From Ectocarpus siliculosus (Eukaryota > Sar > Phaeophyceae > Ectocarpales > Ectocarpaceae): DNA of 64,000 nucleotides. The DNA lies in assembly GCA_000310025.1 (NCBI GenBank), contig FN649729.1, positions 4,775,915 to 4,839,914 on the forward strand. Direction: 5' to 3'. Position numbers and translations under genes: made by a program. The notes under the pieces are model-generated. The model ran no database searches, was not told where the DNA came from, and saw only the letters and a list, made by a program, of their open reading frames with translations. Every line of letters begins with the position of its first letter. The first letter of the stretch is position 1. This document shows positions 8,901 to 53,676 of this stretch, piece by piece.

Positions 8901-11900
8901 CCCGTACAAGGAAAGAAGACACAAACCTAAAACATGACTAGACAGCGTGTTCGCGATTTTGTTCCCGCTGTACAAGACTGCTGCCTTTCCATTGGCCCGG
9001 CTGGTGAGCACGGTCGATGTCAACTAAAAAATACACACGCATACACACACACACACCACTCGGACACGGACACATCATGGGCTTTAAAAACATGTTAGGG
9101 TTTCAGTCGCACTAAGATTGGCATATTTTCACTAGTCCGCCCGTTAACGCGGTCGATGCTAAAAAAAAAAGACACACACATACCACACAGACACACCAAA
9201 AGGGGAAAAGAAACCTGCCACACCGGACCGGACCACCCCAAACAGAAAAAGCCGCAGCGATCCCTCGACCGTGCAGAACCGCGACAGCGACTAACGACTG
9301 CGACCACCACTTGATCGAAACGGCCCAATGTGTTCGAGATATTGCTGCGCCCCCAGCTTGTGGTCACGGTGCTTTTATCGAATCCATTAGGTCGATGCCA
9401 CTCATAATCGGCAGTATAGGGGCCATCTTAATATTCACACTTTGCATCCGAGTCGTCCCCATATTTCCGAACAGCCGTGGATGCACTCGCCTTATCTCGG
9501 TCTTCGCACTCCTTCATCAGGGACACGTTCTCGTCCCCCAGCGTCTTGAGGCACGTCAGCAGCCGCATGATCTCGCCCTGCTGCGCCTCCTCCTCCCGCA
9601 CTCGCCTCGCTTCCTCCTCCGCCGAAGACAGCAACAACGCCGGTCGGCCCTCGCCCCCGCCCCCCTCTCCCGCCGACTCGCCAGCCCACACCCCGCCGGC
9701 TCCAGCCGAAGGTCGATCAGCTCCGCTACCCGGACCTTGCACCCTCCTTGCAGTGTCGGCACCACGACCAACGGTGTTTCCTACACGTGGCGTTTCTCCT
9801 CCCCCTGCAACTCTCCCGTCCGCTCGGGTACCGTCGCCGACGTTGTCGCTTCCGCGGCCAGAGGGAATCTGCGGGGCCCCTTCCGGCGAAGTATCGCTCT
9901 CGTTGAAACGGCGGGGAGCAGAGGTTGATCTCCAGCCGCCGCCGCCGCCGCCGGGGGGGTTCGTGACACCCAACCTCGTCCCGGGCGACCCCAACACCCC
10001 GGCGGCGGGGCCGTTACCGTTACCGTACGCGTTGGCGGGGCCGTTCCCGCCGGCGCCACCGCCACCGAAGATGACCGACTTGTTGAGGAAGAAGAACGAG
10101 TCCCCCAGGGCGGAAGACAGGTGGGGAGCCCCCCCGCTGGAGAGTCGCTGGCGGGCTCGCCCCCCGGGGCCCCCCATCTTGCTCTCGAGCCCGAGCTTGG
10201 CGAGCTGGCGCTCCAGCTCTAGCAAGTCATCCCGTTGCGGCCTTGGCAGATAGGGTGAGGGGTGAGGGTACGTTGGAACAGGTGAGTCATGCCGCGTCCA
10301 GCTCAATTGTATCAGACCAGGCCACCACGTCTGCACCGGCTTATATCCTGAGGTGGTGCACTTGAGTAAAGGATCTACAGGTGTAGGAGCAAGATTGTTG
10401 CTGCTCAGGACTGCATCCATCTAGAAAACACGCTGACCTTTCCATTTTCCCAGCTGCCAAACCTAGCTTACACAGCAGTTGGGTATCGACGTGCGGACGC
10501 TTGTGTATGAAAACCACCACCAACAGTCCCGGGAAGGCATCATTATCTATAATCCGTACAGAACACTACGAAAGTACTCTGTCTCCACCATAGCAGCACC
10601 AGCGCGTGACGGACGGGAAAACATTGAATGCTGTACTACGCCCGGCTCTTTGGCGAGAGAGCGAGATACATCTCTCCACCATCCAAACAGCAGCAACAGC
10701 AACAACAACACAGAAATTGCACACCTAAATTTCTGGGCCAGCTCCGCCGCCGCGTCGCACCCCCCCCCCTTCGCCTCCACGGCGTTGCCGTTCGCCACGG
10801 TGCCCCTCATGATGCTATCGTCCATATCAGGCCCGACCGAGTGGCTACTCCGCCCGTCGCCCCGACCCACCACGTTTTCCCGTCTGCCGTCCCCCTTGCC
10901 CGTAGCCTTGACGCCGGCTGCCGCTGCCCGATAGGCTTCCGCTGGGGTTAGATCTCTCGAAGAGGACAAGGAGTTGTTGAGGGAACCGCGACCTTCGCCG
11001 GAGAGCCTGCCAACAAATCGTTCGACCAATCAGAACCCGCGTGTGCGTGCAAAACGACGACGGTGCCAAGGAGTAGTGCACGAGAGCTTGTTCACTCGCA
11101 GGTACTGTATGCGTAACATTTGATTCAAACCATGGGGGGGAGTAGGATTAAAACCATCCTTCGAGTACCCGTGATGGTGTTGCCGTAATAGCTGGTCGAG
11201 GCAAACAGGACGATATTGAGGGGATGGGGATATGCATCTCCATGTTGGTGTATTTTCCGCCCAACTATTGACAATAGCGGTGACAAGATCACATTGTGCC
11301 GCTCCAATTCAGGATCAGAACACGAATTCCCTCGGTTCTGGTTCTGGTTGGGGTCTCGCTTACCGTAATCGTATAGCCCCCTTCTCTGCCCGAGCGGCGT
11401 GTGAGTCTGCCAGCAGCAGCAGCGAGGAGGCCAGCACGCCATGCTCTTGAACCTGCAGGAAAACACGCACCAACCAATTGATAAACAAGGGGGCTGAGAG
11501 ATGCCTGCTCTTCAAATACCTCAAACAAGTCGACGCCCGGAAGCAGGGGGTGGATGATGTATGCTCTTGAAACACCTGAAATCAATCGACGCCCGAAACC
11601 ACGCGCGTAGAGGGGTTGGATGATGCTGATGCCGTGCCATTGTAACACACCACTCAATCGACGCCCAGTATTGTACATAGCACGTGAAAAGGGGGGGGTG
11701 GATGATGCCTACTCTTGCAACATCCGACTCAAATCGACGCCCGGAAGCACGTGGGGATGTGTGAATGATACCCAGCATGCCGAGAACGTGCGTAGCGTTG
11801 TCCGTAGTTTCACGTTTCGATCAATGGTTTGCATGGGGGGTGGATGTGCCCACAAACAGTTTGCTGCTGTGTGCTACCCTCAGGCAAACGTGCAACAGAG

Positions 11901-14027
11901 GAATCGTTTCTGATCATTCCAGTAGTACTTCTTTGGGTGCGGCCGAACCAGCTTGTGACTTTGTCAGAGAAGGGCTACGGCGTAATGGATTGATTGCGTG
12001 TTGGCTTGTTGCGTCCTTGGAACGCCCATTCCAAGAGCTATGATACACATCTCGTCTCGACCTCTGTACAAACACCAACTCGAGAAAACGTGCAAGACAA
12101 TCGAATCGCTAGATACGAGAGAGATGTCAACTTGCGAAAACAAGCGCCTACAAAGGAACACTACCCACTGCGGTGAAAAAGCCCATGCGGCATGCGGCGC
12201 AATTAATCACTTTATGTACAAGGAGTGGTACCCGTCCGTTCTCGCCTGTTCGGCCGCCCTGAGAAAGTCTCTCGCGGCGGCAAGATGCAGCTCGGTAGCC
12301 TCCGCATGGTCCCCCTTTCTGCACGCATCCTCGGCCCCCTGCGCGCAACGATGCGCCTGTGGCGCGCGCGCGCGAGAGAGAGAGGATGAAGAACATGGGC
12401 GAGTCGGGTACGACGGGGGACGGAGGTTTAGGCTCGGGGTGCTACTTCCTTCCAACACTCGGCATCTACTGTGTACCTGCGGCTCTCTCTCTCTCTCCTT
12501 TGGTACAGTAGCTGGGAAACAGCAGCACCCCCCCCCTACCCGGCGACAAGGTACGTCGGAGTGTCCCACTAGGTGAACAAAACACGCCGCTTTTCGTCTC
12601 GCGCGTGTTCAAAATATAGTCTACTGCTGTTGAAAACCATGCCTACTGTAGATTGGGAATCGCCAAACACACGCCTTCCTCCACACACGCTTCTCGATCC
12701 TTGCGCATGAACACACCACAACACCGCATCCGGTCTAGGTTTCGTTTCATTGCGTGGCGGTGATTGTTACCTCTGCCGCGGCTGGCTGCCGATACTCAGT
12801 AAGGTGGCACAAAGCAAACCGTTGCCGAAGTGACTTGCCGATACTCAGGAAGGTGGCATAAAGCAAACCGTTGCCGCTGTGACTTGCCGATACTCAGGAA
12901 GGTGGCACAAAGCAAACCGTTGCCGCTGTGACTTGTCGATACTCAGGAAGGTGGCACAAAGCAAACCGTTGCCGCTGTGACTTGCCGATACTCAGGAAGG
13001 TGGCATAAAGCAAACCGTTGCCGCTGTGACTTGGGTGTTGGCAGTCTGCTGTACACGTGAAAGTGAGTGTAAGGCTTACAGCAGAACGGCGTGATACCTC
13101 CCATGCCTTCAACCTCCAAGCCTATAGACAAGCGGGACGAAGCCGACATTTGGGAGGGACTCCTGCTCCGATACCTTAGCCCACACACGCACCTTCGTTG
13201 AAGCTTCGGTTCGAACCCAGACATGAGGCACCATCCCATTGCCACTACAATCTTGAACTGTACCAAGGGAGCGACTTGTCGGCGGAGACACTACTATTCC
13301 ACTCGGATACCTCTCTCAAACAGCATGCTTCGTACGCCCGCAGATGCGGTCAAAGCGTGTCATCGTTAGACACACTATTCACAACCAACTCCAGTGATTC
13401 AAGTTTGTCGGCCGGTTGCAGCCGAGCTACTGATGACGGAGAGGCTGGTTGATGCAGTTGATGTTGCACTTCCTTCATTGAACGCGAGTTGACTATTGCT
13501 TGGCCACCTGAACGACAGCGCTCTGTTTTCCTCCATGGCGACGAGCGTCCACGTCGTCCCGCGCCCCTCTCCCACGAATCAAGCTGAGGCCGGGCTGCTG
13601 GAGTAATCCACCAATGGGTTCCACCTCTGCCGAGGCCGAAGCGAACGGCAGGTCCTCTGCCATGATGATGAGAGCTTGTTGCTGGGGAGTGGAGGTGTTT
13701 CCGGACAGCCGACGATGGAGGGCCCCCGCAGATTGTACCCCGTTGTCCCCCACCGCGAATCCATCCTTGGATTCCCCCGCTGCACCTTGCATCCTGGGCA
13801 CCCTCGGCAAACAAGGCAAAGGGCTGGTCATGTCGTTGTAGGCAAACACTGTAGAAAAGCGTCAGAGCAAGACTAGAGGCCTGTGCCGGGTGCAGGTCCC
13901 AACTGTTACGGCGGAAGTCTAGTCGTGACGCGGAGGCTGTTGTCAAGGTTGACTCAGGCGTTCCCGGATTCACTGCTGTGTTGACGCAAGTTACGTCATC
14001 GCAGTCGCTTCCACTGCCTGCGACCAT
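5931..14027 (-). CDS. MIT-like, coiled-coil and poly-Q protein (NRBF2/Atg38-like)
   Basis: Eight exons: 14027-13910, 13848-13508, 12356-12246, 11452-11364, 11006-10725, 10241-9441, 7655-7532 and 6671-5931; 868 aa. All phases match. Residues ~154-215 form a three-helix MIT-like bundle (GAEDACRKGDHAEATELHLA, then SSLLLLADSHAARAEK). A Gly/Ser-rich middle follows, then a coiled coil at ~540-660 (ENVSLMKECEDR ... LTQTNRKLTEQVKKYENYY) and a Gln-rich tail. MIT plus C-terminal coiled coil is the architecture of NRBF2/Atg38, the autophagy PI3-kinase regulator; that function is inferred, and poly-Q tails are not part of the family. Intron 3 appears to use a GC donor (CAG/GCGAGA): every nearby GT donor gives the wrong phase. 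The 5' end is least certain; exon 1 rests on a 61-nt intron, and ATG 13831 is an alternative start. Confidence 0.6.
5990..6530 (-). repeat. CAG/CAA triplet tracts encoding poly-glutamine
   Basis: On the plus strand this is a series of CTG/TTG runs; on the minus strand, in frame with the last exon of the MIT-like gene, they encode at least nine Gln blocks of up to about 16 residues, separated by Pro, His, Ser and Arg. CAA interrupts CAG. The other frames give poly-Ser, poly-Ala or poly-Leu, which are shadows. Such tracts are prone to length change. Confidence 0.85.
8937..9055 (-). repeat. Intronic sense repeat, copy 1
   Basis: In intron 6 of the MIT-like gene, on that gene's strand. Order: GTGT-rich stretch, TTTTTTAG, ACATCGACCG, GCCAATGGAAAGG, CAGTCTTG, AGCGGGA, CGCGAACACG, CTAGTC. 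The closest match is the copy at 20685-20800, which also ends in CTAGTC. Confidence 0.75.
9100..9185 (-). repeat. Intronic sense repeat, copy 2
   Basis: Same intron and strand as copy 1. It has the GTGT/T-tract, TTTAGCATCGACCGCG, a degenerate core, and TTAGTGCGACTGAA, which matches the copy at 43421-43505 (TCAGTGCGATTGAA). Confidence 0.65.
11440..11765. repeat. Tandem repeat overlapping the 5' edge of an exon
   Basis: Four decayed units of about 60-85 bp, each with CTCTTG(A/C)AA..CC and (A/T)CGACGCCC(G/A), adjoin exon 4 (11452-11364) of the MIT-like gene. The exon's own acceptor region (read on plus, ATGCTCTTGAACCTGCAGG) belongs to the same series, so the units are copies of an intron end plus exon start. 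Confidence 0.65.
12788..13032. repeat. 49-bp tandem repeat, five copies
   Basis: The unit contains CGATACTCAGGAAGGTGGCA and CAAACCGTTGCCG(C)TGTGACTT. Copies start near 12788, 12837, 12886, 12935 and 12984 and are nearly identical. The array is in intron 2 of the MIT-like gene. It is a recent minisatellite with no coding role seen. Confidence 0.9.
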
Positions 14028-14057
14028 ATCACCGTTTTCCTTCCCTGGAGAGGGGGC
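14028..14057. promoter_or_regulatory. Very short gap between two divergent start codons
   Basis: Only 30 bp separate the proposed minus-strand ATG at 14027 (MIT-like gene) from the plus-strand ATG at 14058 (CtpA-like gene). If both starts are right, the two 5' leaders must overlap and the promoters lie inside each other's transcribed region. No TATA-like box was seen. The minus-strand start is the less certain of the two. Confidence 0.35.
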
Positions 14058-17000
14058 ATGAAGGCATCCTGCGCAAGACGCGCCCTGGTTCTCCTCCTTC
14101 TGCAGGCGCGCGTGGCAGCTTTTTCTGGCCGCTCTCCAGGGTAAGCGAGAAGACCAAGCAGCAGGACATCATGAGTGTATGCACATCTCTTCCTGTAATT
14201 TTCCCGACTGGGTCAGTGTTGCTGCTGTTGTTGACTCATGACTGCTGTAACTCCTAGTCAGGGCATGCGTTGTAGACGATAGATCGGCATACCATGATGC
14301 TCAAGGTCCTACCCAACAGCGTTGACGCTCGGTTTTACGATGGCTCTACCCTTATGGTGAGCAGCCTGTTGGCGACAGCAGAGTAGTAGTCGCCACGAGT
14401 CGCGAGTCTCTCGTCGTTGTTGGTCCCCGCCGTTGTTGTCGGGCGGTTGCTTGCTTCTCTTCGCCCACTGTGGAAGTTGGGATCTCCACTTACAAGGGCG
14501 ATGGCACCGGTTGAAGGTTAGATATCGTCATGTTCACCTTCGTACCCTTCCCCGGGATACTGGGGTGCGCTTCCTGCTTGTTAGAGCTCAGCCGGGGCGC
14601 GCCATGCGCGTTTGTCGACTTTCGTGCATTTTTAAAATCCAAGCAAACGCCAGCACCCTGGTGCGCGTTGTACTCATGTGTTGACGTCGAGACCTGTTGC
14701 TTGGGGACTTTCCTCTTGTACGGGTACCCGTAAGGTTGCGAGTCAGCGCACAGCGGTGCGATCGATTTTCGAAGCGTCATTTCTCCACAACCAGGAGGTT
14801 ACCACTGTCGAAGAGGGCGGTTTTGAAAATATCTCATTGAGAGCTTTCCGAAGAAGTATCAGGTAGCACTCGCACCCCCTGGTTGCGGCTGGTTGTGGAG
14901 AAATCACGCTTTGAAAATCGATCGCACCTTGGTGCGCTGACTCGCAACCTTACGGTATCTTCGCACTGACAGGACCGATGGCACTAACTGCTGTTATGCC
15001 GCAGCGTTTTTCCCGGGAAGATCTCGGGGTACAGTCGTTGCCTCCACGGGCACAGCCTAGTTTAATCTGAACTGAGGATTGTATGTGGTACATGGATGCG
15101 TATGTAAGCACATCATCTTCTTTTCTACAGCAGTGAAGGGAAGCTTATGTACATTGCCGTGTTGAGCCCACAGCAGTTGACATGTAAAGGGATTATTGCG
15201 ATGTTGGCGTGTAAGTGGATTGCTTGTTGCGTGCCTGTAAGCATGCCCTTTTTAATATTTATTGGCGAACCTTGTTCGAGCGGGGTGGCTATGTATTACA
15301 CAAAAGTTCAAAGTCTCAAGACGAACAACAACACTTTGCGGCGGAACTGCCAGCTAAAAAAGCATCAAGATTCCCCGACTGCTGCAATGTACTTCGCAGT
15401 CTCTTTGTGCGGAGTGCCAACATGAGTTGGCATGGAACTGTACTCTTGGGAGACACACATTCCCCCGCATGCCCAGGGCTCAGCCTGGGACTCTTTGGCA
15501 AGATCCAGCCATGGAGGTGTAGCCATGGAAATCCTTGCGGAGGAGACTGTAGCATCCCATCTTGCACCATATCTTGTGCCACTCGGTGATTGGCGTGCAA
15601 CACCGAGCGCTATCTAGTACGAACAAAGATGGGGGTTGCATTCCACATGACGACTTGCCTTCAGGGCACATGCTTTACGCTCCTCGTTCCTCCGCGTCTA
15701 TCTCCCGGTATCACCCCCGGCTCTCTGTCCGTTGACCCCCGCGCTCTCTCGGCCACCGACGCTCACTCTCGACGGAACAACGAACGACCAGGCAAAGAAG
15801 ACCACGAGTCCAAGTACGCCCTTCAGCAGTGGCTGCGGTGGCTGCGGTGGCGGCGTCGCGGGCAACTCACCCCCCGCCCTCCGCCTTCAGACGCGCACGC
15901 CCGGGGCAGGCGCCGCCTATCCTGGGCGGCGGCCGATGCGGGGGCGGCAACAATGGCCTCGGTGATGGGAACTCCCGGCAGGTCCACATTCCGTTAACCG
16001 TCCTGCAGGGGTGGTTTGACGGGCTCGGAGCCGGGGACAGCTTGGGCGATGCAGACAAAGGAGGCGGCGGAGAATCTGGAGGGGGGGGCAAGTCGGGGGG
16101 GGCGGGGGGCGACAAGGCAAAACGAAAGAGCGGTGGTAGCAGTAGTAGTAGTAGCCCAAGTAGCAGTTCGAGGGGGCCGGGGAAGGCGACGCCTCCTCTG
16201 CAGGGTGGGCCGGGGTCCTCGAGCCTCTTCTCGATGCTAGGAAGGTTAGGTGACGGCGGGGGGACATCTAGTGGCGGCAGCGGCAAGAGCACGAAAGCGG
16301 AATCTGGTACCACCGCGAAGGGGAAGGATGGCCAAGCGGAGGACGCGACCGGAGAGGACGGGGGGCAGCAGGGATTCGGGCCGATGCAGACGCTGGCGGC
16401 CGTGGGCGAGAGCTTCTCGGCGGGGGCCGCGGCATTCCAGGAACGGTTCTCGGAGATCAGTCCGCAGAACGTTACCTTGGTGCTCGGTGGAGGCAAGGTG
16501 GCCAACGTGATGGTGCCTTGGAAGGGGGTGGGCATCTACGCGGGGGGGCTGCTGAGCGGCCTCGCGCTGGCCGTGGGGCTGCTGACGGTCCCGTACTCGG
16601 ACTTGGGGTCGCCGGGCTTGAGGAAGAGCCTGACGCTGTTCGAGAATGTGCTCGTGGATATCGACCAGGTGAGTCTTTTTGACGGGGTGTAGTCGTATAG
16701 ACGCATGTCATTAGTCGTTAGACCATTGACCTCGCATCCCTACAATGCCGGGACGTGGCGATATGTCCATTTTTCGTCGGCCCAGGCTACGTTTTACAAG
16801 GATGAACCAGAAAGTAGATCGCAATCCTCGTGTTTTTCTGTGCCAAAACTGGAATATTGCCGGCTTACCAAACGTTTCGCATTCGGTAGGCACTACTACT
16901 CTTCAAGTACCGCAAGGGACTTCGATGTTTGCGCGCTTGAACGAAACATGTGCTCCACACACAGCGAACACGTCGTTTCGTGTATGATGTACTTGAAGTA

Positions 17001-20000
17001 CAATGTTCTTTTCCAGGAGGTCGGTACATGCACTCCCGGGGGTGACTCAAGTCGAAAAAACACTATGAGAGTCTGAAACGTACATTTAGTTATCTAAGAG
17101 ATGGTGTACTGAAGGCTGAAGGCTGGCGTAGTGGAAAGAGGTCGGGAAGTATGAAACATCACAGACGTTTGCATCGGGAGGGTTGGGATATGGCTGACCG
17201 TGATAGGTGATACGAAACGCCATTCCGTACAATTTGTTCGCTGCAATCAACTCGATGTTTGTAGCATATGCATACGGGTGCGACATGAAGTGAAGATACT
17301 CCTGGACACTGGAATAAGTAGTAGGAGCGGAACCTGCGACTAGCACAAGTCCTGTTTTATCCTCGCTGAAATAGTCATAAAATGTTTTTAATCCTGATCC
17401 TGGGATGATGGTGCTGTTGAGGCTCTGAGATACATGGGTAATGATATCTGCTCGAAGCACATGATGGAGGTCAGGCGTGTTGTGGATTCGTCGCGAAACA
17501 CAGCGCAATAAGCATGCACCATCACCGATGTCGGGTAAAATGGACCATTGACCTGGGGTGGAATTATTATTGGAGTCGTCGTCGTCGTTGTTGTTCGAAA
17601 ATTCCTTATCTGGGTCGTCGTGAAAAGGCTGTTGTTCGATTCGTTCTTTTTTCATTTTCTCGTGTATTTCCATTACCACGAAGGCATGAGCCGCAAGAGC
17701 ACTCGCTCCAAAAACACAGCCAGCAGAGCCTCGAACGCGGGCGCTAGCTCATCGGCTGCTGAAGGGACGAAGTCGTCGGAAACTCCCCTCAGATCTCACG
17801 TCAACGGCACGCCGGTGATCAACCTTGTCCCAGCTACAAGGTTGATCACCGGCGTGCCGTCGACGTGAGATGCGAGGGGAGGCTCTGACGACTTCGTCTC
17901 TTCAGTTCAGCAGCCGATGAGCTACCGCCAGCGTTCGATGCTTTGCTGGCTATGTTGTTGGAGCGAGTGTTGCTGCGGCCCATTGATGCCATTGACGACT
18001 ATTTTTTTTTCGCGAAATGGTGGTTGTGTGCGAGTGCGCGACCTCGCATCGCTGGTCGTCAACGTATTTTCACGCAAAAAAAAGATGACGATTTCGCGCA
18101 AACGCCAACAACGGATCAAAGAGACGTTCATCAACGTGCCCGACGAAGGGCACATTGGTGGCATTGTTACGTTGCGCGGTGGTTCTTGTTGTCGGCCGTC
18201 GCGACGTGGCCAAGATATACGCTTCTCACGGAACAACTTGTTTTCTGTGGTGACGAACTTGAGCGGGGGGCACACAAAAGAGAAGATCGCCGCTGGTTCT
18301 GTACTCGTTGCATCCACTGTGAGGAGCTGTGCGATGTTCATTTATCATGCTGGGAGCGTGCCAACGTCCTTTGAAGAGAACGACCTGTTGTATTCGAAGT
18401 ACAAACATGAACGAGAGTATATACAAATTTCCTTCAAACAGAACAGTTTTCGGGTAAAACGCGGACAGTCCGGTGACGGCGGGTGATCTCGAAAGCTCGT
18501 TGCTGCTGTGTCCTGGGTTTCTTCCTCGTGACAAGTATCATGAGAGCTGTCGTGTTTAGGATGCTTACGTCATTCTATGGTCCGCTGTCGATAAATACCT
18601 GTTGTATTCGAAGTACAAACACGAACGACACACGATTCTGTCCAGCCACGAAGCGAACGTACATACATTTCGTTCAAACGGATTAAACCGTACCGTGAGG
18701 GCGGGTAACCTCTTCGTTGCTGCTGTGTAGTGGTGTTCTTCCTAACGACATGAGAGGTATCATAGAGAGAGGTGTTGTGTTTTTGGACTCTCACTACCCG
18801 CGTGAGGATATGCTCTGATGTCGCTAAATACCCGTGTCGGTAGTGGACAGCAAACGCAACGTATGCATGTGTTCGTGAAATTCCACAAGAATAAGCGGAC
18901 CGTTCCTGGTGGAAAAGGCACGCGCAACTAAAAAACAGACCACCAATAGTGAAAACCGCCCCGCCCACTAGAAAGTGTTCCTGTTCATGTACATCTGAAG
19001 GCTTTTTTGGTTTGGATTCGCAGCCCCTAAAAAAAGAGCGAGTCCCGGCGGCTTCAGGTGGCCAGTGCGCGCACCACCAATGTCTCGCGAGACCCACGCA
19101 AAGCGGGTAGTGTACGGACGGGTCCTCTGAGTGCCATGCAGAAGAAAAAAAGTGTTAGAAGAAACGCTGTCCCACCAGAGAAAAAAGAACACAACCACCA
19201 AAAAAGTCGAAATGCTATGCATACACATGCATGTAGTATGCTTGTATACTTCGGGTGGAAAACTCCGGATGGAGTATTCCATACCAAGACTTTTGCTGTA
19301 GGGCATTCCAACTATCCAGTGTTCAGCGGAGATCCTATAAGGGGTGAGAACTCTCTAAGACCGAAACTCCCATGCCCTTTGTGGAGGGAAGGGAGGGAGG
19401 GCATGACTAAGTGCGTGTGGAGAATGAAGCACCGATAAGAAAAACCGGCAATAGAGGTACATATGCTGGTACTTCAAAGCAATTTACTCGGAGCGCCACC
19501 CGAATAGTAATCTTCTGTTGTCTTCCTGCCTCTTCCCTCTTGTTTTGCTACCGGACCTTGAGGGTCGCACGGCCAACCATTGGTTTTTGCTGCGGACCGC
19601 ACGCTGTAGTTGTGCATGCGGCGGTCTCTCGAAATCAAGCGGCCTACATCCGCCACTGCTGTGATGCATCGTGGACGAAACCTACCCCTTTGGGTGCAAT
19701 CTATCGTAATTCCCCCGGCTGTCTCGCTTCTAGACTACTCCCATTGGTCGGTTTTCGCGACATTCGTCGCGAGTCCTCAGCGTTGGTCTGAGCGTCCGGT
19801 TTGTGAGCTTTCCGACGACCATTTCCGTTCCCTCTTAATTGCCCGGTCGGAAATCCCCCCCCACCGAACGTAGCGCGTAGTGCTGAGGATTTTGCGACAA
19901 TATCTCTCAGCGCACTCAGCGCTCTACCGTACCTCGCTATTCATTAGCTCCGCGTGCGGGCTAGTGTTCGTTCTGAGGGGCGATGTGAAGCCACCTTTCG

Positions 20001-23000
20001 TAGCGATAGATCGCGCCGGAAAACAATCCGTTGGCGAAGGAACATCTCGAAGTGTTCGACACGGAAGGATAAGAGTCGGCGGCGCCTGCTGGCGTCGATC
20101 TGTCTGCCAGTGAGCATACATAATTCGGCAAACTTTGCACCCACGAACATTGTTCTGGCATGGGCAGGGCGGTAAGGGCATGGTACCGTATGTCATCCCC
20201 GAAGAGCCACGAAGGACCCTGCCTAGATGACCCCCCAACGATAGTATCATACCTCCCCGTTGGGTGGTTTGGTTTCCCTCTGCAAAACGCATGCATACGA
20301 TAGATGCATAACCCAGATGGTTTACGTACGTGACTAACATTGACCAAAGCAGTACCTGTTGTTCCAGGGTATGACCACATGAGTTACCAACACGGTATTG
20401 CCTATCCCAGGATTCCAACCGTCTACGTACTATTTAGCACAGTCATTTATGTTGTAGCAAAACAACTGCTTTACGCCCCCGCCGGTGGGTGCCGACCAAT
20501 GCGGTTTGATATGGAAACGAGCCAGCACCGAACCGCTAGCCAGCGCTGAACCCCGGTTGCGTGGCCTCAGGGTGTGGTTCCTATTACGTCCCCCCACCCC
20601 TTGCTGCTGTGTCTATTCTCTCCTTTGTGCGTTTGGTTACTTTCCGACTTCCAACGCTGCAACTGAGGTGTGCTTGTCAATACGTGTATTTCTGTGTTTG
20701 ATTGGCATCGACTGCGCTGTAACCGTCTGACCAATGGAACGACGTCGGTCTTGAAGCGGAAAAATAACGCGAACACGTTTTCTAGTCAAAGGATCCTATG
20801 CGTACCGAGAGCAGTGTATGTGTGTGCACTTCTTTGCTGTTGGCATCTGCGGCACCAACCGGCTGATCACGGAAGAGGTGTCAGTCTAAGTGCGGCTAGA
20901 AACGAAAAACGCTTCTACACGTCATGGTGTAATTCTCTCAGTCTCTGACACTCACTCACCCACTCACTCACTTCCTCACCCTCTCTCTCGCAAACTCCTC
21001 TCCATCTCTATCACACTCTCACACTCACTCCCTCACTCGCTCGCCCTCTCACGCACTCACTTTTTCCCTCTATCTCACTCTCACAATCACTGTCTCCCTC
21101 TTCCTCTCCACAGAATCTCACACTCACTCACTCACCTACTCACTCACTCACTTACTCTATCTTTCACTTACTCACCCACCCACTCACCCCCTCTCTCGCA
21201 CTCACTCAGTTAACCCACTAAATATTCATCTCTTTACAATTTTTAGCTCCCGCTCGCTCACTTACCCACCTACTCACTCACTCTCGCGTACACCCTGTCA
21301 GTCCTCAACTCTATCTCTCTCACACAAGAAGTCACTCACTCACTCATCCTTTCTCTTATATCCTCTCACCCTCCATCTCTCCATTTATCTCTCCCCCTGG
21401 CCCGTCTTGGGTACTACTATTTTAGGGGTACGTGGAGGAGGTTAACCCGGAGCGGCTCCTGGAGACCGCGGTGGGATCGATGCTCAGGACTCTGGACCCT
21501 TACACGGAGTACCAGGTGTGTTTTGTGTGTGAATTTTGTTGCGGCATTGTGGTTTTACTTCCATGCTTTACGGGCCCCCGTCCATTCGGACATATCCCTG
21601 TGCCGACCCGCGGATGTTTTATGTTCAGCGGACAACAACAACAACAACAACAATAGCAACACCCGACCCACGGGGCGCGCTCTATGTGACTGGGCCCACT
21701 CGGCTATGCTGTATCCCATCCAGAACAATCAAGCGGCGGCTGACTTGAAGGAGACCGTGTCAGGGAGGTACGGGGGGGTGGGGCTCGTCATATCCGGCGG
21801 GAAGCAGAGGGGAGAGCAGCAGCAGACGACGGGCGAAGCAGGTGAAGGACCCATGTCTTTTTTGTGTCCTCTCGGGGGGGGTGGGATGCAGGGACGGCAA
21901 AAGAAATGTGTACATGCATACCCATGCCCGGGACTGTTTTTTTCTTTGCGTGTGCTGTATTTTTGTCGTGCCCTTCTCCTTGTCGCATTGATTGAAAATA
22001 TAGAGGAGGCTCTGCGTTAGGGTCAGGCATACACATGGCCCGGCCTTACTTTTTTATTGTGTTCTATATCTCTGCCGCCTTTCTCCTTTCGTGTGTTTGA
22101 CCAGCCACAAAGCTTCGGCACAGGCGTGACCGTACACCTCAGTGCCATACAAGTGCGGGCAAGCGCGTAGATTTGCCGTCGATCCTCAGTAGCTCGACTG
22201 CTCCACCGAAAGGTTGCCAATGCCGAACACAGGTGGTTTTGGTAAGATCTACGGCCTCATCGAAGGAGGAATTTTTCCCTGGACGTGTCGATCGGGTCTA
22301 GCACCGTCTTTGGTCGTGCAGCAATCGATCTTTGAACGTAGATCGCTCTCGCACCTGTCTGTACGTTCGCCCGCACGTTTCCGGCACCATCTTCTCTCGT
22401 CCTTGCTCTTCTGGTGGCATCAGAAACGACGAGCTATCATGCCACCCGCACCATCCCGCCGCTTTTCTCGAAACGACACGTTTTCTCCAACCGACACATG
22501 CCTCCTCCACCAGCAGGAACTCCTTCCGTCCACGACGCCGCCTCCTGTTGCCACCTATGCGACCGCCCGTAACGCCGTCCATTCGCTCCCCGCGTGCTGC
22601 TATTGCCGCCTTCCTTTCGCCCGCACGGTTGCCGCAGAGCCACCAAAAGGGGGGCAGACGAGTGTGGGGGGCGGGGTACAGAAGGACGGGGGGGGCAAGG
22701 GTCGGGGGACGATCGTGCGAGGTGCTAAGCGAGAGGCCGGGAAGGACGGCATCACGGTGGTGTCGGCCTTCGAGGGGTACGCCTTCGACGCCGGGATGCG
22801 GGCTGGCGATAAGATAACCGCCATCAACGGGAAGCCGGTGGAAGGCATCACCGTTGAGAAGGTACTTAGAAGTGACAAGCGTGCGTTAAATAAGTAGATC
22901 CAGAAACGAAGATGCGCTTTGCGAGTTTCATGCGCGTGTTGTTGTTAATTTATGCACGTGTCTCGTGTCAAGGTCGAGTATGAAGCTCCTGCTAGCTACT

Positions 23001-29000: not shown

Positions 29001-32000
29001 CAGGTGGGTTGGAACGGACTGACTTTTTTCTTTTGTTGGTGGCGGTGTTTTGTCGGCCGTCGCCATCGGTGCCACGTGAGTTTTTTTGAACCGTTGAGAT
29101 GCGATTGTGTGATGTCGAAGATCCATCGAGGATCCTACATCACCTGAGGCTTCTGCTGGGGGTGGGGGGAGGGAGGTTATTCATCCGTGGAGGGCGATGG
29201 ATGTTTGCCTACATTCTTTCAGTACATTCATCGACGGGACCGTTGCCGCTCGGCCAAGGCGCGCATTTCCTTGTCCCCGAAGTGACAAGAGCTGACACCA
29301 GTGGGGCGGTGATTTGCCGTACATGGCGGCGCTGCGGTCACCGGAACAGAATATTTTCGTTCGTGTGGTTGTGGTATGTGTTTAACGAACGGTGAACGAA
29401 AGTAGTTCTTCTTGGCTCTTGGGCGGATGACGTCATGGCAAGAGCAGTAGTTGTTGTTGGGTGATCGCGGTTTAGCCGTTTTTGGACTTGAAGGTGACGA
29501 GCTGTTTTCTTTCTGTGCGTTTTTTTTTTTGTTGTTGTGTGTGTGTGTTTGAAATCGCATCGACCGCGCTAGCCGACTGAGCAAGGAGAAGACGCCAGTC
29601 TTTCAGCGGGATACGAAACGCAAACACGCCTTTCTACTCAAAGGGTTCTACCAACAGGGGGGGCGCAGGAGTTAGACGACCGTGCCCTGTGTCCTGCTTG
29701 CGCAGTTTGATGAGACGACTCGATATTTTGTGTGCGTGTTGCAGTGTCGTGTTTCTGCAGTACAAAGAGAAGACCCAATGTTCGTGTGTGTGCGTGTTGC
29801 TCTCCACTCAGGTGCAAGGAGCCTACTTCGACTTCGCCGGGCAGTGGACCAAGACCCACACGTTCAAGGGGACGGACGTGGTGACGGACGGGGTCCTGAG
29901 GGATTTCAAGAACTTCGTCTACAAGCGGCAGAAGGAGGTGTGTTGTTGGAGGAAGCCATTGGTGTGGTTGCGGGTGTTGCCGCCGTTGCTGATGCTACTG
30001 CTGCTCTGCTGCTGTTGTTGTTGCTACTGATGTTTTTGTTTCACACCGAGAATCCGATCTGGCATTTGTATCCAGTACGAAAGTGGTCAAGTACAACTTG
30101 AATATTCCATCTTCCTGCGGCACGCGATAACACCGGTGCATGGTACGGTTATCTGTTACACGGTTATGTCCATGAGCCTCAGTTCCGTGTAGCGGGAACT
30201 GCCGAGGGCAGTTCATCCGGAGGACTGCCGTCGCAGGCGAACTTCGTTCCGCCGCGTTGTCGCTGTCGCCTTCTGGCCCAAGCGTCCACCGAGAGAAAGC
30301 CCCCCCCTACAGGCAATTCGCATGCACATCAGAAAGGCGCAATAAAGTGGTTCGATGATTATTGAAATACTCACAACTTCACAGCGACGAGCAGCGAAAC
30401 ATCGGGAGTGAGTTCTTGAGCAATGCCGTATCTGCCCGCGTTCTTGCTCATCCTCTGCTGCTGCTGCTGCTGCTGCTGATGTTTTGTTTTGTTTTCGTCA
30501 ATTTCGTTCGTCAGGGTACGTACGACCTCGCGGCGATTTACGGGCCCCAGTTGGAGTCATTGGAGTCCATCCTGGAGGACTCCAACCTCGGCCACTACGA
30601 GAAGCTGGTGGAACCCCTTCCCAAGAAACTGACGCAGGAGATGCTCACCGCGTTCGACTCTCGCAAGGAGCGGATAAGAGCTTCCCTTGAGGAGGCCATC
30701 CTTTCTAGGTACAGCAGTACGCTTGACCGGGCATTAGGTGGAAATTGGGAGCGACGGTTACAAGTTGGGTACGACAATAATTCAAACAGCGTTCGGCATA
30801 AAGTGGGCATTATGCCGGAAGCCCGTACACGCTAAGACACTGCATCCAAACCGTGCAGCAACAGCTCTTTTTTGCCGGAGCCTGACTTGGTTCGAACTGA
30901 CCCCCCCCCCCCCCCCCCCCCCCCTTTCACCAAAAACAAAAATTGCCCCCCCCCCGGGGTGGCAAAATTTTTCCCCGCGTCCCCCCCCGAAAAAAGGGGG
31001 GTTGGAAAAAAAAAAAAAAAAACCCCCCCTTTTTAAACCCCCCCCAAATTTTCCCCGGAAAGGGGGGGAAAAACCCCAAAAAACCCCCCCCCCCCCCCCC
31101 AGGAAGTGGGGCCCCTATTTTTTTTAAAAAAAAAAAAAAGCCCCCCCTTTAAAAAAAAAAAAAAAACCCCCCCCCCTTTTTTTAAAAAAAAAAAAAAAAC
31201 CCCAGGGGCCCCCCCCCCCCCCCCCTTTTTAATTTTTTTTCCAGGGAAAAAAAAAAAAAAACCGGNNNNNNNNNNNNNNNNNNNNNNNNNNNNNNNNNNN
31301 NNNNNNNNNNNNNNNNNNNNNNNNNNNNNNNNNNNNNNNNNNNNNNNNNNNNNNNNNNNNNNNNNTGGCCCTGCGGGTCGTGCCCTGGTGGTGCCCGGGT
31401 CCGGTTCCGCCTCCCCCCCCCCCCCCCCCCCCCCCCCGACGCACGCAAACACGCCTTCTGCCACCCCCCGTCATTGGCAATTTTTGCCGCAGGTATCTTC
31501 CGGAGAGCATGGTGCTTCGGAAGCAGCTAGACAGGGACCCGCAGTTTCAAGTCGCCCTCGAATTGGTCCAGGATAAGGGGATGTACAACCGGATAATCAC
31601 ACCAGCAGACGCCAAGGTACTTGGGACTCTTAATTCTTTAGCAGCAATGACGATGCGTGCCTTGTGAAATATGTACTACAGCAGTGGCAGTTGTTTTCAT
31701 CTACAGTAAGAACTCCAAGTGGCATCTCTCTGTCCGCACTTTCATATTTTAGTTGCAAGGGAATCGACAATAGCAGCGGTGACACTGCATGCTTGTGAAA
31801 CATGTGCTTCGAACGCATTTGCTTTCGGCTACGCTATTAATGTCTCCCAAGTTATTTATTTTTCAGTCCGCATGTTGATATTTTGTTTGCCAGGGGGTCC
31901 ACAATCTTGTTACTCGAAAAGCGTTTGTTCCGTGGCAAGTACCATCAACTTGGTAGGGCACTGTGTCGTTGTAGTTTTGGAGGATATTTTTATCCGAGAA

Positions 32001-37800: not shown

Positions 37801-38125
37801 AGACTGGGATACTGGAGACGCGAGCCCCCCTTCCGCCGACGCCGCAACGGATAGGGCTGGGTCATCTCGTGTAGCTACCATAGGTCCGAGAAAACCCGCC
37901 TATATCATCTCTGCTGCTGCTTCTGGGGGAACGGCGGAAGTCTACGTTGCCAATGTGTACGACCTGAAGAAGCTGCAGACGGATAGCTTCCGCTACTGTT
38001 GGAAGACCGCCCAAAGGCTGCACCAAGCCAGGGCGCAAGCTTGGGGAGTCGAAGCTTTGGCTCAGCAGTTGCGGAGGCAGAACGAATGGGATGCCCGGAA
38101 ACGCGGAGTTTTGTCGCAAATTTGA
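34808..38125 (+). CDS. Protein with two cyclic-nucleotide-binding-like domains
   Basis: Five exons, all phase 0: 34808-35167, 35271-35693, 36318-36431, 36858-36995, 37289-38125; 623 aa. CNB domain 1 (~235-345): QLRHFAAGSTIFRQWEHQDK runs across a splice site into ICVILRGRVHLTS and later LGSDSFAAVV. CNB domain 2 (~346-590): FLKCSAVFSTLNDDDL, QVICKEGSRVDHVYVVKRG, LGENGMLKHLD, then ~85 residues of Ser/Pro/Thr-rich insertion before AEVYVANVYDLKKL. No ion-channel or kinase domain, so it resembles CNBD2-type solo CNB proteins. Domain 1 has no clear phosphate-binding cassette (the family Arg of RAATV is not kept; AYTTV instead), so ligand binding is doubtful. The start (ATG 34808) and the exon 3 donor (GAA/GTGCGA) are the weaker calls; upstream exons are possible. 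Confidence 0.75.
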
Positions 38126-39578: not shown

Positions 39579-48365
<8,787 letters not shown>

Positions 48366-49968
48366 AGTAAACGGCTGGCCAAGGTTCTTGGATGGTTGCA
48401 TCAATGTGCGGCCGTGACTTACGGGTCTGAAGTGGTCGAATATCCGATGTACAGATCTCCGAAGTGGAGATCTCCGATTTGCAGAAGAACACGACGACGA
48501 CGACGATGACGAAGCAGAGCCCCGGGCGGGGAGACTATAATGCTGGGTTGTACCGACCGCATGAGGTGCCCTTTCACGGTGACTCCGTCATGGTACACCT
48601 CTTAAAGACACGTGCACACTGTACATGCCTACGGTTGGTGCGTACCTGATTAGGACATGTACATGCCTGCCTATGGTTGGTGCCGCCTGTTAATCGATAT
48701 AGACATGCGTCGGGTACCACGACTTTCATACGGTGGCACTTCTTTCGAAGGATGTAGAATAGTCTGCGGATTTGGTCGGCCGGTGCTACACTCCGTTTGA
48801 ATGGAGGCCCTGACGTAAATGCACGCTAACCATTACTGTTATAAAGTGTGGTGTGTCCGTGCTGTAAGTAAAGGCCATGGGGGCTCTCTTTGGACACACA
48901 CGCTACGCTCGGGGGGAGGTGATGTTTTTTTTATTATTTGGCGGCAGTATAGATGTGAATCGTGAATTGACGTTGCGCGCGAGTTTCCGAACAGATGGCT
49001 GATTCGCACGATGTTACGGAAGAACATAGACAGAACTACGGCGGGATGGGGTCATGAGACTACTGTAGTGCGTCTGCTCGTGAAGGCTGTTGCACATAGG
49101 AACAACTGCTAAGAGGCATGACCGCTCACGGCTCTGTCGATAAGAAGGTCGCTTCTCGCTTCTCTTTTCACTTGAAACTGGCGTGTGGACGCGCTATTTC
49201 CGTGTGGAACCGAGATGCACAACATTCGTTCCGTCGCTTGGTATACGTAGCTGTAACACACCTCTCAGCAGTTTCTCGAAAATCAGCCACCATGCAATTG
49301 ATGTATGGAGAAACAAACTCATGGTACTTGGGGTAAAACGGTGTGTGTCCACAAGTACGTCATATCCTGAGAGGCACATCGACAGCAGCAGCAGTTAAAC
49401 GGAGGACCATGGCCGAAACCGCCAGCTCTAAGGCACTCCTGAATCGATCAAAATAATGGACCGCTTCCAATTATTCAAGACCCTGGAGTTCGGTAACGCG
49501 TATCACATGACCAACACTCCTGGTCTTTCTCGAGCCAAAGCTTACCCAATGAAATCCTTTTAACAGCACGCAACACTCAGGAACAATAAATGTTTGCATG
49601 GCAGACTCTGTACTTGCCCTTATGATGGCCTGCTACATAATTCTTCGTGCTTGCGCCTCAGCTAAACGTCAATCCCGTCACCCCAAATGTCTACTCATGC
49701 TACATTCGTTGTAATCGGCATCCACAACTCACTTGACTTTCTCCGCATCACACACTACGCGATTTTTGCCAGCACATGTCAAGGTGTTACGCATATATAT
49801 ATATGGGAACGAGCCGCGGACACGCTCAATTTCTGTGTATTGTTCCTCCCCGAGCGCAATCCGAAATGGGGGAAACCCACGTAAGGCTGGCCTGTTCACA
49901 CTATATACTGCGTCAAACAAAATCTTGGCCAAAACCGCGTCGCCGGGCGTCCTTGCATGGCTTACCGC
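48366..49968. other. Start of the convergent intergenic stretch
   Basis: Lies between the 3' ends of the spastin-like (plus) and methyltransferase (minus) genes. No supported exon or RNA gene; the remainder up to 50835 is mostly the nested MITE pair. Confidence 0.5.
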
Positions 49969-50509
49969 ATACCGTATCATACACGGCACAAGATTAACCC
50001 TCCTAGTACTGGAAGCCCAAATGGGGGCACTTTGGGACACAGCACTCAAAGGCCTATTTACCGCACTGTAGTCACCATAGGCTCCGCTCTGTGCAACGCA
50101 CGTGAGAACCCTTGGTCTATCATGCTTGGCTGAGGTGGTACGCTGTGTGATATGATGCTGTGTGGTGCCTCTCCTGGGCCTCTGACTTGCTGTACACATC
50201 TCCCAACCCGCGTGCCTCCTGGGTCGTAAAACTGTGCATCGCCTGGTACTGGATAAATTGGCTGACTTGGCTTCAGCATGTTTTGGGGACACTTGTCATA
50301 CTGAAGCCAAGTCGCCCTTTGTCTGGCAAGGAGCTCAGATTCTTTGGAGGGACTGTAGCCCCTCGCCCAATGGCTGATAAACATTTTTTCGGCATTTTGT
50401 TTTGCAGACTAAGTACTAGGAGGGTTAATTAACACACCCCGTGACTCCATTTTTAAAATGGATTTGCTAGATAGCACCGGGGTGTGTTATCTTGTGTCGT
50501 GTACGGTAC
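49969..50509. mobile_element. MITE interrupted by another MITE (outer element)
   Basis: Left terminus ATACCGTATCATACACGGCA and right terminus GGTGTGTTATCTTGTGTCGT with GTACGGTA are the same terminal sequences as the element at 38591-38747. Without the inner insertion the element would be about 110 bp. No coding capacity. Confidence 0.75.
49998..50424. mobile_element. 427-bp TTAA-flanked MITE (piggyBac-like ends)
   Basis: Both ends carry CCCTCCTAGTACT as an inverted repeat and both are flanked by TTAA (49994-49997 and 50425-50428). TTAA target sites with CCC..GGG ends are typical of piggyBac-type elements. There is an inner inverted repeat (GACTTGGCTTCAG, ~50268-50312) and no transposase, so it is non-autonomous. 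A fragment lies at 24172. Confidence 0.8.
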
Positions 50510-50835
50510 GAAGCTCGACTCGGCGCCTTGCGGCGGGGCAAATCTTACCATCAAACAGAGGCGAATCCACTCAATACGCTAACACGTTGTGCACTCGCTT
50601 TCCGGGCCTAAACGACAGACCGGGCGGGGGTCGCTTTCACGTGCAAGCTGCGGTGCCCCGCCGTATCACGACGGCACGCAATTTCTACAGCAGCACCAGC
50701 AGCGCCACCGCACCTGGCAACGCTGTCTCCCATTGTTTTTAAACCGGCACGCCTAAGTGTCTACACGCCAAACCATGTCGTTACTCGTGGTCCTTTCGAG
50801 AGACACAACCCGCAGTTTTTCGCCGGCCCCCGCCC

Positions 50836-53676
50836 TCATCGCTTCCTCAAGAGGTACAAGAACTGCCCGAAACACCCGCCCTCTCTCTGGATGTCGTGCA
50901 CCTGCAAGTCCCAGCCATAGGGACCCCCCCCTTCCCCATCATCGCTGTGCCCCTCCTCTCCGCCCTGCCGTCTTGCGCCAAGATGACCGGCAGCGGCGGG
51001 GTGCTCGCCCAGAAGAAACTTCCTCCGGAAGTGGACCTGCTCGAACGAAAGCTGTACGAAAACGCCTCCGGACACGAGCACCCTGGAAACCTCCGCGCAC
51101 ATGCGGTGGGATTGCTCGATTGTGGCTGGGTCCGGGTTCCAAGGATCACCCTTATCAACCATTAAGGCGTCCATTGCCGCCTGGGATTCCGCGAAAGGAG
51201 AGGGAGGCAGGATCGGTACGGGGATGCCTTGGTTCTTCCATCTGGACAGTGATAACAGCAGTCTACTCCTGTACTCAAAAACCGGAACACCATCTATTAA
51301 TAGGATGGGCTTCTGTCGAATCACGACCGAACAAATGGGAGAGTGGTGATGTTGAATTTAAATCTGCACGCAGGACAGAGGTCGGTACAGTAACGGTCCC
51401 GTCGAGTGAAACGCTACATCATAATTTACTTCATCCGAAACAAACGACCACCACCTATGCATAGCAGCAAGAAAAGGGCGCGCTCTTCCAACTTTTTCGA
51501 CAGCGGTGAAACCTGACGCACCGCACGTGCGCGCACGCGGCATCTGGCGAGGCGCGAGTTTCCTCGTCATTTCATACAGCAGCATACTGTACCTTGTCTA
51601 CGACGGCGTCAAAGCTCGCGTCCTCTGCCGCCAGGGCGAGCATGTCCATCTTCTCCCACCGCAGCCCCGGGCGAGCCGCGAGGTGCTTCGCCCGCATCTT
51701 GTCTATCACCACCGCCGAGAAGTCCGTGCTGAGCATATCCCTGCAGGTATCAGGGGGTGTTGTAGAGCGTATTTGGGGGGAGGGATACTCATATATCGCT
51801 TGCCTTATTCTTGTCACTTGACGTCTACAATATTACAAGTAATGAAAAGACTAACGTCCTAAAAAAATGGGACGACACCTACACACATTAAAGGGACTGA
51901 CGTATCTTCATTGGTCAGCCGGTTGGCGTGGTCGATGCTAAAAATAGAATAACACACACACTCGCCTGTATCCGTCATCATACATGTCCGCGCTGAGGCC
52001 ACTGTTGCCACAGCCAACGATGAGTATTCGGGCATCCCTCGGCACCGCTTCATGCAAGTACTCCGCGATGTCGGCGTAGCTCGCTAGCCACTTTCCCGCA
52101 CGCCAAGCAAAGAGATCAATCACACGAGGAGTGCGCATGAAAAGAGGCACGTCACGCTTGAGGCAGCAACACCAACGAGAGCAAAACCGTATGTGCCAAA
52201 CCAAGGGTATTCATGTCCGTTAAGCACTTCCCCGGCAATGTCGGCATAACTCGCATTACCCTTCTTTTTTCACTTGGAGTAACGACTCGCTACAGTGAGC
52301 AAAGCGCGTGAACACGGGTTGTTCTATCTTACTTTCAGTGTGGGTGCATTAGGCCCACAAATGGACTCGAGTTGGCCTGGGGATCTCTCACATCGTACGA
52401 CTCCTCCTCGGAGAAGCGGCTGTCCCAGTATTCCTTTGCCTTGTACACCAAGTTGGACGAGGGCAGTGCTGCAGAACCCGCATCTTTCCTTGGGCTAGTG
52501 CAACCGCCGCCACTACTACTACTACCATCCGGTGCTGACGCTGGTTCTGCCTCCGCTGCTCGCTCTTCAGCGCCTGAGGGCGCTGCGACGGTCGCACCAT
52601 CCTAAAGGCAGCACGGAAGGGACAGGATGGTCGTAGGAGAGTTGGCGGCGTTGTCGGTCTGTAAAAGCACACATGTAGCACCGCCTATGCATACCATTCA
52701 CCTTACACCTCCATAGCCTGCCGGGCTGGGCTGGAGACTTGCGCTGTAGTTAGGATCGACGATCTACATAGGCTCTCTCATGTAAAACTGTCCTACAACA
52801 TCAGCGCCGCCCCCTGCTGCTCACTATCCTATAGGTATGCTCGCGCCGACGACTGCTAAGTACGTCGCGTCAACATGCACCTCGGTAGTGGGTTCACCTG
52901 AACATTGGAGGTTCCTCTGAGAGAGTGGCCCCAGTACACGAGGTCTGTCTCGCGGTAGGTGGGAAATCGCCACAATAACGGTTCGAGTCTGTTACAAACT
53001 ACCTATGTCCACCCTGCGTGTCGCTACCGTACTAAGTTTGTACCTACACCCACGAGTGTGCCAACAGGAGTGTGCTACCGCCGAGAGATGCATAAAATAC
53101 CGCACCCCCCTGTTCACATGTCCAAAGCCTGACAACTACAAGAGGATACCACGGATGAAATGATACAATTGCGGAAAGCTTTCGGCGCGACGGTTCTAAT
53201 GCCTCCGGCAATTTTTTGGCACCGCCATCGTCGTCGTTGCTGCAGCAAAAGTCGACCTGGGTAAGATATGCACTGAACTTTGAGAGTGGCGGTGGTACGC
53301 AAGCCGGTTTCCATTGACGGTTGTCCTTCCAATCACTGCAATGAACACGACCAACCACATAGACTAAATAGATCGACAGAGGTACTCCTTCGTCATCTAG
53401 TTTTAAAGTCTACGGGGTGTATGCAGCGGTCGTGTCGTGCATGTCCAACACACAGCAGACACTCCGCGCGTTGGTGCCTGTGTATGCACGGCGGTAAGCG
53501 CTCTGCCTGCTGTGTTCACTCACCTGGTGTTGGAGGTGCTGTCGCAAACTCTCCAGCGTTTCCGCGGACAGATTGGTCTCGAGAGATGCCCAGTCCACCC
53601 CAAGCACTTCCTCGCCCTCGCTCCCGCTGTCCCCACCATCAATCATGGCCGCCGCACACACCCCACCCCACACCAA
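50836..53676 (-). CDS. METTL13/EEF1AKMT4-type SAM-dependent methyltransferase
   Basis: Five exons: 53676-53524, 52601-52392, 52090-51966, 51740-51593, 51180-50836; 326 aa. Acidic N-terminus, then YKAKEYWDSRFSEEESYD joined to WLASYADIAEYL, SAM motif I ILIVGCGNSGLS (~143-155), GYRDMLSTDFSAVVIDKM, FDAVVDK, DALMVDKGDPWNP, EVSRVLVSGGVFVQLSF and a final QFLYLLRKR. This order is that of the METTL13/EEF1AKMT4 family, which methylates lysines of elongation factor 1A; the substrate here is inferred. Intron 3 starts GCGAGT, not GT: only this donor gives the gap-free GYRDMLSTDFS expected from the family. The last exon contains an in-frame ~29-residue Gly-rich stretch after FRRKFLL that the family lacks. 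Start: ATG 53676, or 53646 (MIDGG), which has the better context. Confidence 0.85.
51884..51965 (-). repeat. Intronic sense repeat, copy 9
   Basis: In intron 3 of the methyltransferase gene, sense, starting at the donor itself: GAGTGTGTGTGTTATT, CTATTTTTAGCATCGACC, CCGGCTGACCAATGAAG, ACGTCAGTC. Confidence 0.75.
52215..52262 (-). repeat. Decayed copy of the 5' end of methyltransferase exon 3
   Basis: On the minus strand, GCGAGTTATGCCGACATTGC in the intron upstream resembles exon 3's GCGAGCTACGCCGACATCGC, with an AAG-type boundary before both. About 48 bp align. It lies ~130 bp upstream of the true exon. Confidence 0.55.

What the first reader, a model, noticed from the sequence alone, without database searches (positions are those of the whole stretch)
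8937..51965. A short repeat family found only in introns and always in the sense direction
Nine copies (8937, 9100, 20685, 29519, 43421, 43540, 45750, 45850, 51884) share the order GTGT-rich, T-tract usually ending AG, CATCGACCGC, CTGACCAATGG, ACGTCAGTCTTGAAGCGGGA, CGCGAACACG. They sit in four genes on both strands and each is on its host gene's sense strand. Three tandem pairs reduce independence, but no antisense or intergenic copy was seen. The T-tract plus AG resembles a 3' splice site, so the family could be introner-like, depend on splicing or transcription, or be lost when antisense.
Basis: partly seen in the sequence, partly recalled or inferred. Interest (0 to 1): 0.82.

Follow-up and report, generated by a model that had tools for sequence, protein, structure and literature searches.

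The report
Retrotransposon tails landing in GT repeats

Summary
All nine copies are real (nhmmer E 5.9e-19 to 1.1e-7). The family is large: 1,433 genome matches to a 28-mer, control 0. 'Only introns, always sense' fails. Of 91 fetched loci 87 gave a copy; a codon model put 48 sense, 18 antisense, 3 mixed, 18 without nearby coding. A second sample of 36 gave 14:5, 4 mixed, 13 none (pooled 62:23, p 3e-5). Five antisense host exons pass Pfam cut-offs. On the other strand the repeat is the 3' end of a 5'-truncated non-LTR retrotransposon: one copy (L093) runs from this tail through a degraded reverse-transcriptase region, and a less broken homologous piece passes Pfam RVT_1 (6.6e-10). Two bodies share the 3' end. 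The truncated end again abuts GT runs in 56 of 137 last copies (random 2.2% and 0.8%). The bias fits the antisense bias of LINEs known from mammalian introns. One unusual feature remains: in the first sample the tail lay within 80 bp of an exon in 24 of 66 loci (null 8-12%), some as exon|GTGTGT; the second sample gave 3 of 19 (not significant). Whole-intron introners are not supported.

The parts
8946..9056 (-). copy 1: 3'-end core 9019-8946 plus GT/T tail up to 9056; body type a
   Evidence: nhmmer 2.1e-9; sequence
9100..9210 (-). copy 2, tandem with copy 1; body resembles type b (by eye); GT/T tail about 9159-9210
   Evidence: nhmmer 1.1e-7; sequence
20665..20792 (+). copy 3: tail about 20665-20705, core and body a 20706-20792
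   Evidence: nhmmer 8e-18; extent
   Evidence: nhmmer 1.9e-4; extent
29520..29725 (+). copy 4: tail about 29520-29557, core and body a to 29725; then GT-flanked fragments up to the likely acceptor near 29808
   Evidence: nhmmer 6.7e-19
43422..43541 (+). copy 5, body b, in an intron of an AAA ATPase gene
   Evidence: nhmmer 1.9e-15; extent; likely donor at about 43385
43537..43672 (+). copy 6, body a, tandem after copy 5
   Evidence: nhmmer 5.9e-19; extent
45746..45839 (+). copy 7, body a
   Evidence: nhmmer 7.5e-17; extent
45846..46102 (+). copy 8, body a, tandem after copy 7
   Evidence: nhmmer 2e-17; extent
51884..51962 (-). copy 9: its GT tail directly follows a coding stretch that reads like a methyltransferase motif (own reading; that stretch itself had no Pfam hit)
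   Evidence: nhmmer 4.4e-9; sequence; downstream exon Methyltransf_25 2.3e-5, below cut-off
63278..63340 (+). probable decayed copy: exon..CACAG|(GT)n..TTTAGCACCCACCGTGTTAA at a splice donor
   Evidence: by eye; not among the nhmmer hits
8047..8163 (+). decayed plus-strand relic(s) between minus-strand exons; possible antisense or intergenic copy
   Evidence: nhmmer 0.82 and 0.003; exon strands

Best explanation
The family is the 3' end, seen from the opposite strand, of a 5'-truncated non-LTR (LINE-type) retrotransposon and of a second element body that shares the same about 45-base 3' end. On the element's own strand a copy ends approximately ...CATTGGTCAGCCGGTTAGCGCGGTCGATG-CTAATTAAGAAAA-(CA)n. 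Copies insert into GT/CA runs, with the CA-ended RNA tail presumably annealing to a nicked GT run (inferred), and are cut off at varying points towards the element's 5' end (shown). New copies can land in the GT tail of older ones, giving the tandem arrays (inferred). Some copies sit with the tail at a splice site: exon|GTGTGT in one orientation, CTAAT..CA-rich..CAG|exon in the other (seen). A GT-rich donor may serve as target and the inserted GT tail may serve as donor, so such insertions may be tolerated (inferred).
For: L093 carries the tail core (320-383) and, on the strand for which that tail is the 3' end, a degraded RT-like region at 2090-3277; L092 and L094 (same tail) align to it over 1.8 kb at 84% and 0.73 kb at 87%, and L095 (no tail) over 2.9 kb at 80%. 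The homologous piece of L097 passes Pfam RVT_1: 6.6e-10, 39.5 bits, cut-off 29.6. RT pieces are few (24 matches at 14 places, a lower bound) while 3'-end matches number 1,433, as 5' truncation predicts. Alignable end of 150 copies: median 90 nt, 5-95% 42-251, the upper value capped by the body-a probe of about 250 nt. GT of 7+ letters at the truncated end: 35 of 98 copies with no close next copy and 28 of 52 with one, random 56 of 2,493; second sample 21 of 39 against 7 of 919; also seen in antisense and no-coding loci. Orientation 48:18, p 3e-4; second sample 14:5, p 0.06 alone. Passages of PMC3088655 report antisense bias of LINEs in mammalian introns, stronger near exons.
Against: No copy with both tail and unbroken RT was seen; the Pfam-passing RT piece (L097, 1.1 kb) does not itself reach the tail. 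L093 and L095 RT pieces gave no RT hit and the fold prediction was useless (pLDDT 34). Target duplication cannot be told apart from GT tail plus GT target, and about 60% of truncated ends show no GT run. The splice-site excess was not significant in the second sample (3 of 19). Tandem order showed no age gradient (23 against 17 of 43), so nested insertion is not proven. Gene strand rests on a self-trained codon model.
Confidence: 0.87

Rival explanations
1. Introner-like element: insertion into exons creates new introns, with the GT tail as donor, so the family is spread by intron gain.
For: 24 of 66 loci have the copy core within 80 bp of an exon on the tail side, against 8.0% (45 bp null) or 11.8% (80 bp null), p 1e-10 and 2e-7; 7 of the 19 edge-sense loci read AG|GTGTG by eye. 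Exon ends without the core motif nearby rarely carry GT runs: 1 of 26 in the window, that one a probable decayed copy, and 4 of 52 in loci; random 80-mers 3.0%.
Against: The intron goes on for 185-758 bp past the element in 9 of 9 edge-sense loci with a found next exon (10 not found). Of 5 edge-antisense loci: 382, 656, 831, one not found, and 45 bp in L003, where the 'exon' may be the element's own coding. Copies without nearby coding: 18 of 87 and 13 of 36. Edge excess not significant in the second sample, 3 of 19.
Confidence: 0.08
2. Reader's sense-only family dependent on transcription or splicing, using the T-tract AG as acceptor.
For: 9 of 9 in the window on the strand of neighbouring coding; 62:23 over both genome samples.
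Against: 23 antisense loci; five antisense host exons pass Pfam cut-offs: MCM (L003), Ank (L022), PC4 (L037), DnaJ_C (L086), IPK (L049). AG not kept better in sense copies.
Confidence: 0.04
3. Bias set by the target alone: GT runs lie on the sense strand of introns, so a GT-seeking element lands that way.
For: Strong GT association at both ends. Away from core motifs, exon-flanking stretches hold GT runs 8 times and AC runs 2 times in 155 edges, p 0.11: a sense excess is not excluded.
Against: Such runs are scarce, and the numbers are too small to carry a 2.7:1 bias (window GT 1/26 and 1/28, AC 1/26 and 0/28; loci GT 4/52 and 2/49, AC 1/52 and 0/49).
Confidence: 0.25
4. Body a is a SINE or other non-autonomous element whose 3' end is borrowed from the LINE with body b.
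For: Two bodies share one 3' end; in what I fetched, body a was not linked to an RT gene, and its far part found only 4 matches.
Against: Body b joins an RT-like region, so the family as a whole is not a SINE. No Rfam hit in the window at gathering thresholds; promoter boxes not tested.
Confidence: 0.15

Closest known systems
LINE/CRE families of Ectocarpus (PMC12477816; abstract, section 5 part 1 and passages seen)
   Same: Genome of similar size (200.2 Mb there); two CRE families, 4,821 copies of which 30 intact, 0.42% of the genome, i.e. about 170 bp each (my division): the size and copy number expected here. The paper says LINEs there are frequently 5'-truncated and prominent in introns.
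   Different: The parts I saw mention no GT target, orientation bias or splice-site position for CRE.
Togen, (TG)n-specific non-LTR retrotransposons of fish (PMC4640811; abstract and passages seen)
   Same: Non-LTR retrotransposon tied to TG runs.
   Different: Its position near NeSL/HERO is given as unresolved there; relationship to the present element not tested.
Antisense LINE bias in mammalian introns (PMC3088655; passages seen)
   Same: LINEs are biased to lie antisense to the gene, more so near exons; elements very close to exons favour the donor side.
   Different: There elements near exons are depleted; here the first sample shows an excess.
Introners (PMC9860276; passages seen)
   Same: Element end at a splice site; opposite orientations considered.
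   Different: Here the element is part of a longer intron in the loci where this could be seen, and probably also lies outside genes.

Membership tests
Non-LTR retrotransposon (LINE) | encodes a reverse transcriptase | tested here: met
   L097 piece RVT_1 6.6e-10; the homologous region lies in L093, which has the tail. Every RT copy read (L093, L095-L104) has stops or frame breaks
Non-LTR retrotransposon (LINE) | fixed 3' end, variable 5' truncation | tested here: met
   150 copies measured from the tail, alignable ends 42-251 nt (5-95%; upper value capped by the probe)
Non-LTR retrotransposon (LINE) | target-site duplication | tested here: inconclusive
   GT on both sides cannot be separated from tail plus GT target
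CRE clade / restriction-like endonuclease LINE | RT tree position | not tested
   no reference RT set at hand
CRE clade / restriction-like endonuclease LINE | C-terminal restriction-like endonuclease | tested here: inconclusive
   no Pfam endonuclease hit in the L093 and L095 pieces; MDLVIPPG..DVTIVNP in L095 looks like such a site only by recalled motif
Microsatellite-specific LINE | copies inserted in one simple repeat | tested here: met
   GT of 7+ at the truncated end 35/98 and 21/39; random 56/2,493 and 7/919: a strong preference, not shown to be exclusive
Introner | element spans the intron from splice site to splice site | tested here: not met
   0 of 9 edge-sense loci with a found next exon; 1 of 4 edge-antisense (L003, doubtful exon)
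Introner | intron absent from close relatives | not testable with these tools
   no relatives of G000 held
SINE | Pol III promoter or tRNA/5S/7SL-derived head | not tested
   none

The most novel reading that the evidence does not exclude
A GT-seeking LINE uses host splice donors as landing pads: it inserts at GT-rich donors (or, turned round, at acceptors) and its own (GT)n tail, or on the other strand its CTAAT-plus-CA-rich end, becomes the working splice site, so that insertion at the most dangerous place in an intron is self-healing.
Probability: 0.3. Interest if true: 0.75.

Novelty: new member of a known kind. Interest (0 to 1): 0.42.

Why it matters
It turns an apparent sense-only intron family into a GT-landing retrotransposon with a usual orientation bias, which guards against reading single windows as rules. 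If the splice-edge excess holds, it is a natural case of a mobile element that supplies the splice site it would destroy, opposite to the exon-edge depletion reported for mammals, and it would be testable with RNA-seq and relatives' genomes.

Tried and rejected
Rfam on the window: no match at gathering thresholds. Covariance model R1 was built but could not be used on G000. Pfam and PDB searches with L093 and L095 RT pieces found nothing useful; only the L097 piece passed. Fold prediction of the L095 piece was too poor to use, so no fold search was run. The far part of body a found only 4 matches and no RT partner. Alignment A2 was made for a profile search that I then did not run. Tandem age order: no gradient. 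AG conservation: no difference. Edge and non-edge copies do not differ in likeness to the consensus (p 0.19). Literature: nine searches; in their listings and in the parts of papers seen I found no report of GT-targeted CRE copies or of LINE tails acting as splice donors in brown algae, which does not show that none exists (the CRE supplements were not readable).

Full report
Check. The genome is probably a brown alga: one host gene has the EsV-1-7 cysteine motif (L076, 1.8e-31); that this motif marks brown algae is recalled, and no tool names the species.

Anatomy. I fetched 91 loci of 2 kb, which are all matches outside the window, neighbours merged. Copies typically show a GT run, a T-rich stretch close to TTTTCTTAATTAG, then CATCGACCGCGCTAACCGGCTGACCAATGAAAA(G/T)ACGTCAGTCT, then one of two different bodies; GT of 7+ letters lies within 45 nt before the core in 98 of 150 copies. 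The far end breaks off at varying points (median 90 nt, 5-95% 42-251, the upper value capped by a body-a probe of about 250 nt). That is a LINE 3' end seen from the other strand.

The element. Body b leads into longer copies: L092, L093 and L094 carry the tail and align with each other over up to 1.8 kb; L095, which lacks the tail, aligns to L093 over 2.9 kb. L093 holds degraded coding with RT-like motifs on the strand for which this tail is the 3' end. Pfam did not recognise the L093 or L095 pieces, but the homologous, less broken L097 piece, with X at its stop, passes RVT_1 at 6.6e-10. A search with a 161-aa RT piece gave 24 matches at 14 places, a lower bound, far fewer than the 3' ends, as 5' truncation predicts. 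Every RT copy I read (L093, L095-L104) has stops or frame breaks. Body a was not linked to an RT.

Landing site. At the truncated end, GT of 7+ letters occurs in 35 of 98 copies without a close next copy and in 28 of 52 with one, against 56 of 2,493 random points, and in 21 of 39 against 7 of 919 in a second sample. It is seen in sense (8/30 interior, 8/21 edge), antisense (6/14, 2/4) and no-coding loci (8/18), not in the mixed ones (0/2).

Orientation. A codon model seeded with four exons of the window's AAA gene and self-trained on window plus loci gave gene strands. Of 91 loci, 4 lacked a profile hit and were dropped (L017, L035, L069, L070). Of 87, after removing 4 coding segments that overlap the element: 48 sense, 18 antisense, 3 mixed, 18 none. 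I tested 20 segments, chosen by eye, in Pfam. Ten lay antisense to the copy (8 from antisense loci, 2 from the mixed locus L051): 5 above cut-off, 1 below, 4 none. Ten came from sense loci: 6 above, 1 below, 3 none. This confirms real exons, not the whole model. A second sample was planned in the notebook after its pattern search was sent but before any locus was fetched: 36 loci at about every third place of the first 100 exact matches printed, so contigs C1-C11 only. It gave 14 sense, 5 antisense, 4 mixed, 13 none (p 0.06 alone). Pooled 62:23, p 3e-5. LINEs in mammalian introns show the same kind of bias (PMC3088655, passages). 'None' loci, 18 of 87 and 13 of 36, compare with 19 of 124 tiles of the window (31/123 against 19/124, p 0.06); this suggests, but does not prove, copies outside genes.

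Splice edges. In the first sample the copy core lay within 80 bp of a tail-side exon in 24 of 66 loci (19 sense, 5 antisense); random non-coding points in the same loci gave 8.0% within 45 bp and 11.8% within 80 bp. Seven of the 19 sense cases read AG|GTGTG by eye (L015, L020, L029, L040, L043, L063, L080), others have another donor with the tail next to it; antisense cases include CTAATTAAAACACGCACGCACACGCACGTGCAG|exon (L024) and CTAATAAACACCCGCACGTACAG|exon (L077). The window copy at 51884 looks alike by eye. Exon ends without the core motif near them rarely hold GT runs (1 of 26; 4 of 52; random 80-mers 3.0%; 43 edges with the motif were left out). But the second sample gave only 3 of 19 (null 6.6% and 11.1%, p 0.13 and 0.35). 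The two samples do not differ significantly (Fisher p 0.10) and the pool of 27 of 85 stays above the null, so the excess is likely but not proven. In edge-sense loci the intron runs on 185-758 bp past the element (9 found, 10 not found); in edge-antisense loci 382, 656 and 831 bp, one not found, and 45 bp in L003, where the 'exon' may be element coding. This speaks against introners and for insertion at existing splice sites.

Not supported: use of the T-tract AG as acceptor (21 of 44 sense, 12 of 19 antisense, 12 of 21 none, 2 of 3 mixed) and youngest-nearest-exon order in arrays (23 against 17 of 43).

Verdict. A known kind of thing, a microsatellite-landing, 5'-truncated LINE, quite possibly the CRE LINE already counted in Ectocarpus (PMC12477816), which I could not test. 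The sense-only claim is the chance of a small window on top of a real 2.7:1 bias. The splice-edge position is the part worth a second look.

Noticed in passing
43682-44038: Array of a 77-bp unit (4.7 copies) in the same AAA-gene intron just after copies 5 and 6.
   Followed up: no
44471-44743: The exon end ATCGACGAG with its donor GTGTGA recurs at 44698, at the end of a 91-bp tandem duplication (44557-44743): a copied donor within the intron.
   Followed up: partly
16718-16739: Word of a second interspersed repeat (TTAGACCATTGACCTCGCATCC region), whose 19-base part also occurs in L018, L026, L056, L067 and L068; L018, L026, L033, L067 and L068 share stretches of up to 364 bp at 83-93%.
   Followed up: partly
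12787-13033: 49-bp unit repeated 5 times at 95% match.
   Followed up: no
L082 about 30-922 (coordinates in copy orientation): Two body-b copies head to head form a long inverted repeat.
   Followed up: no
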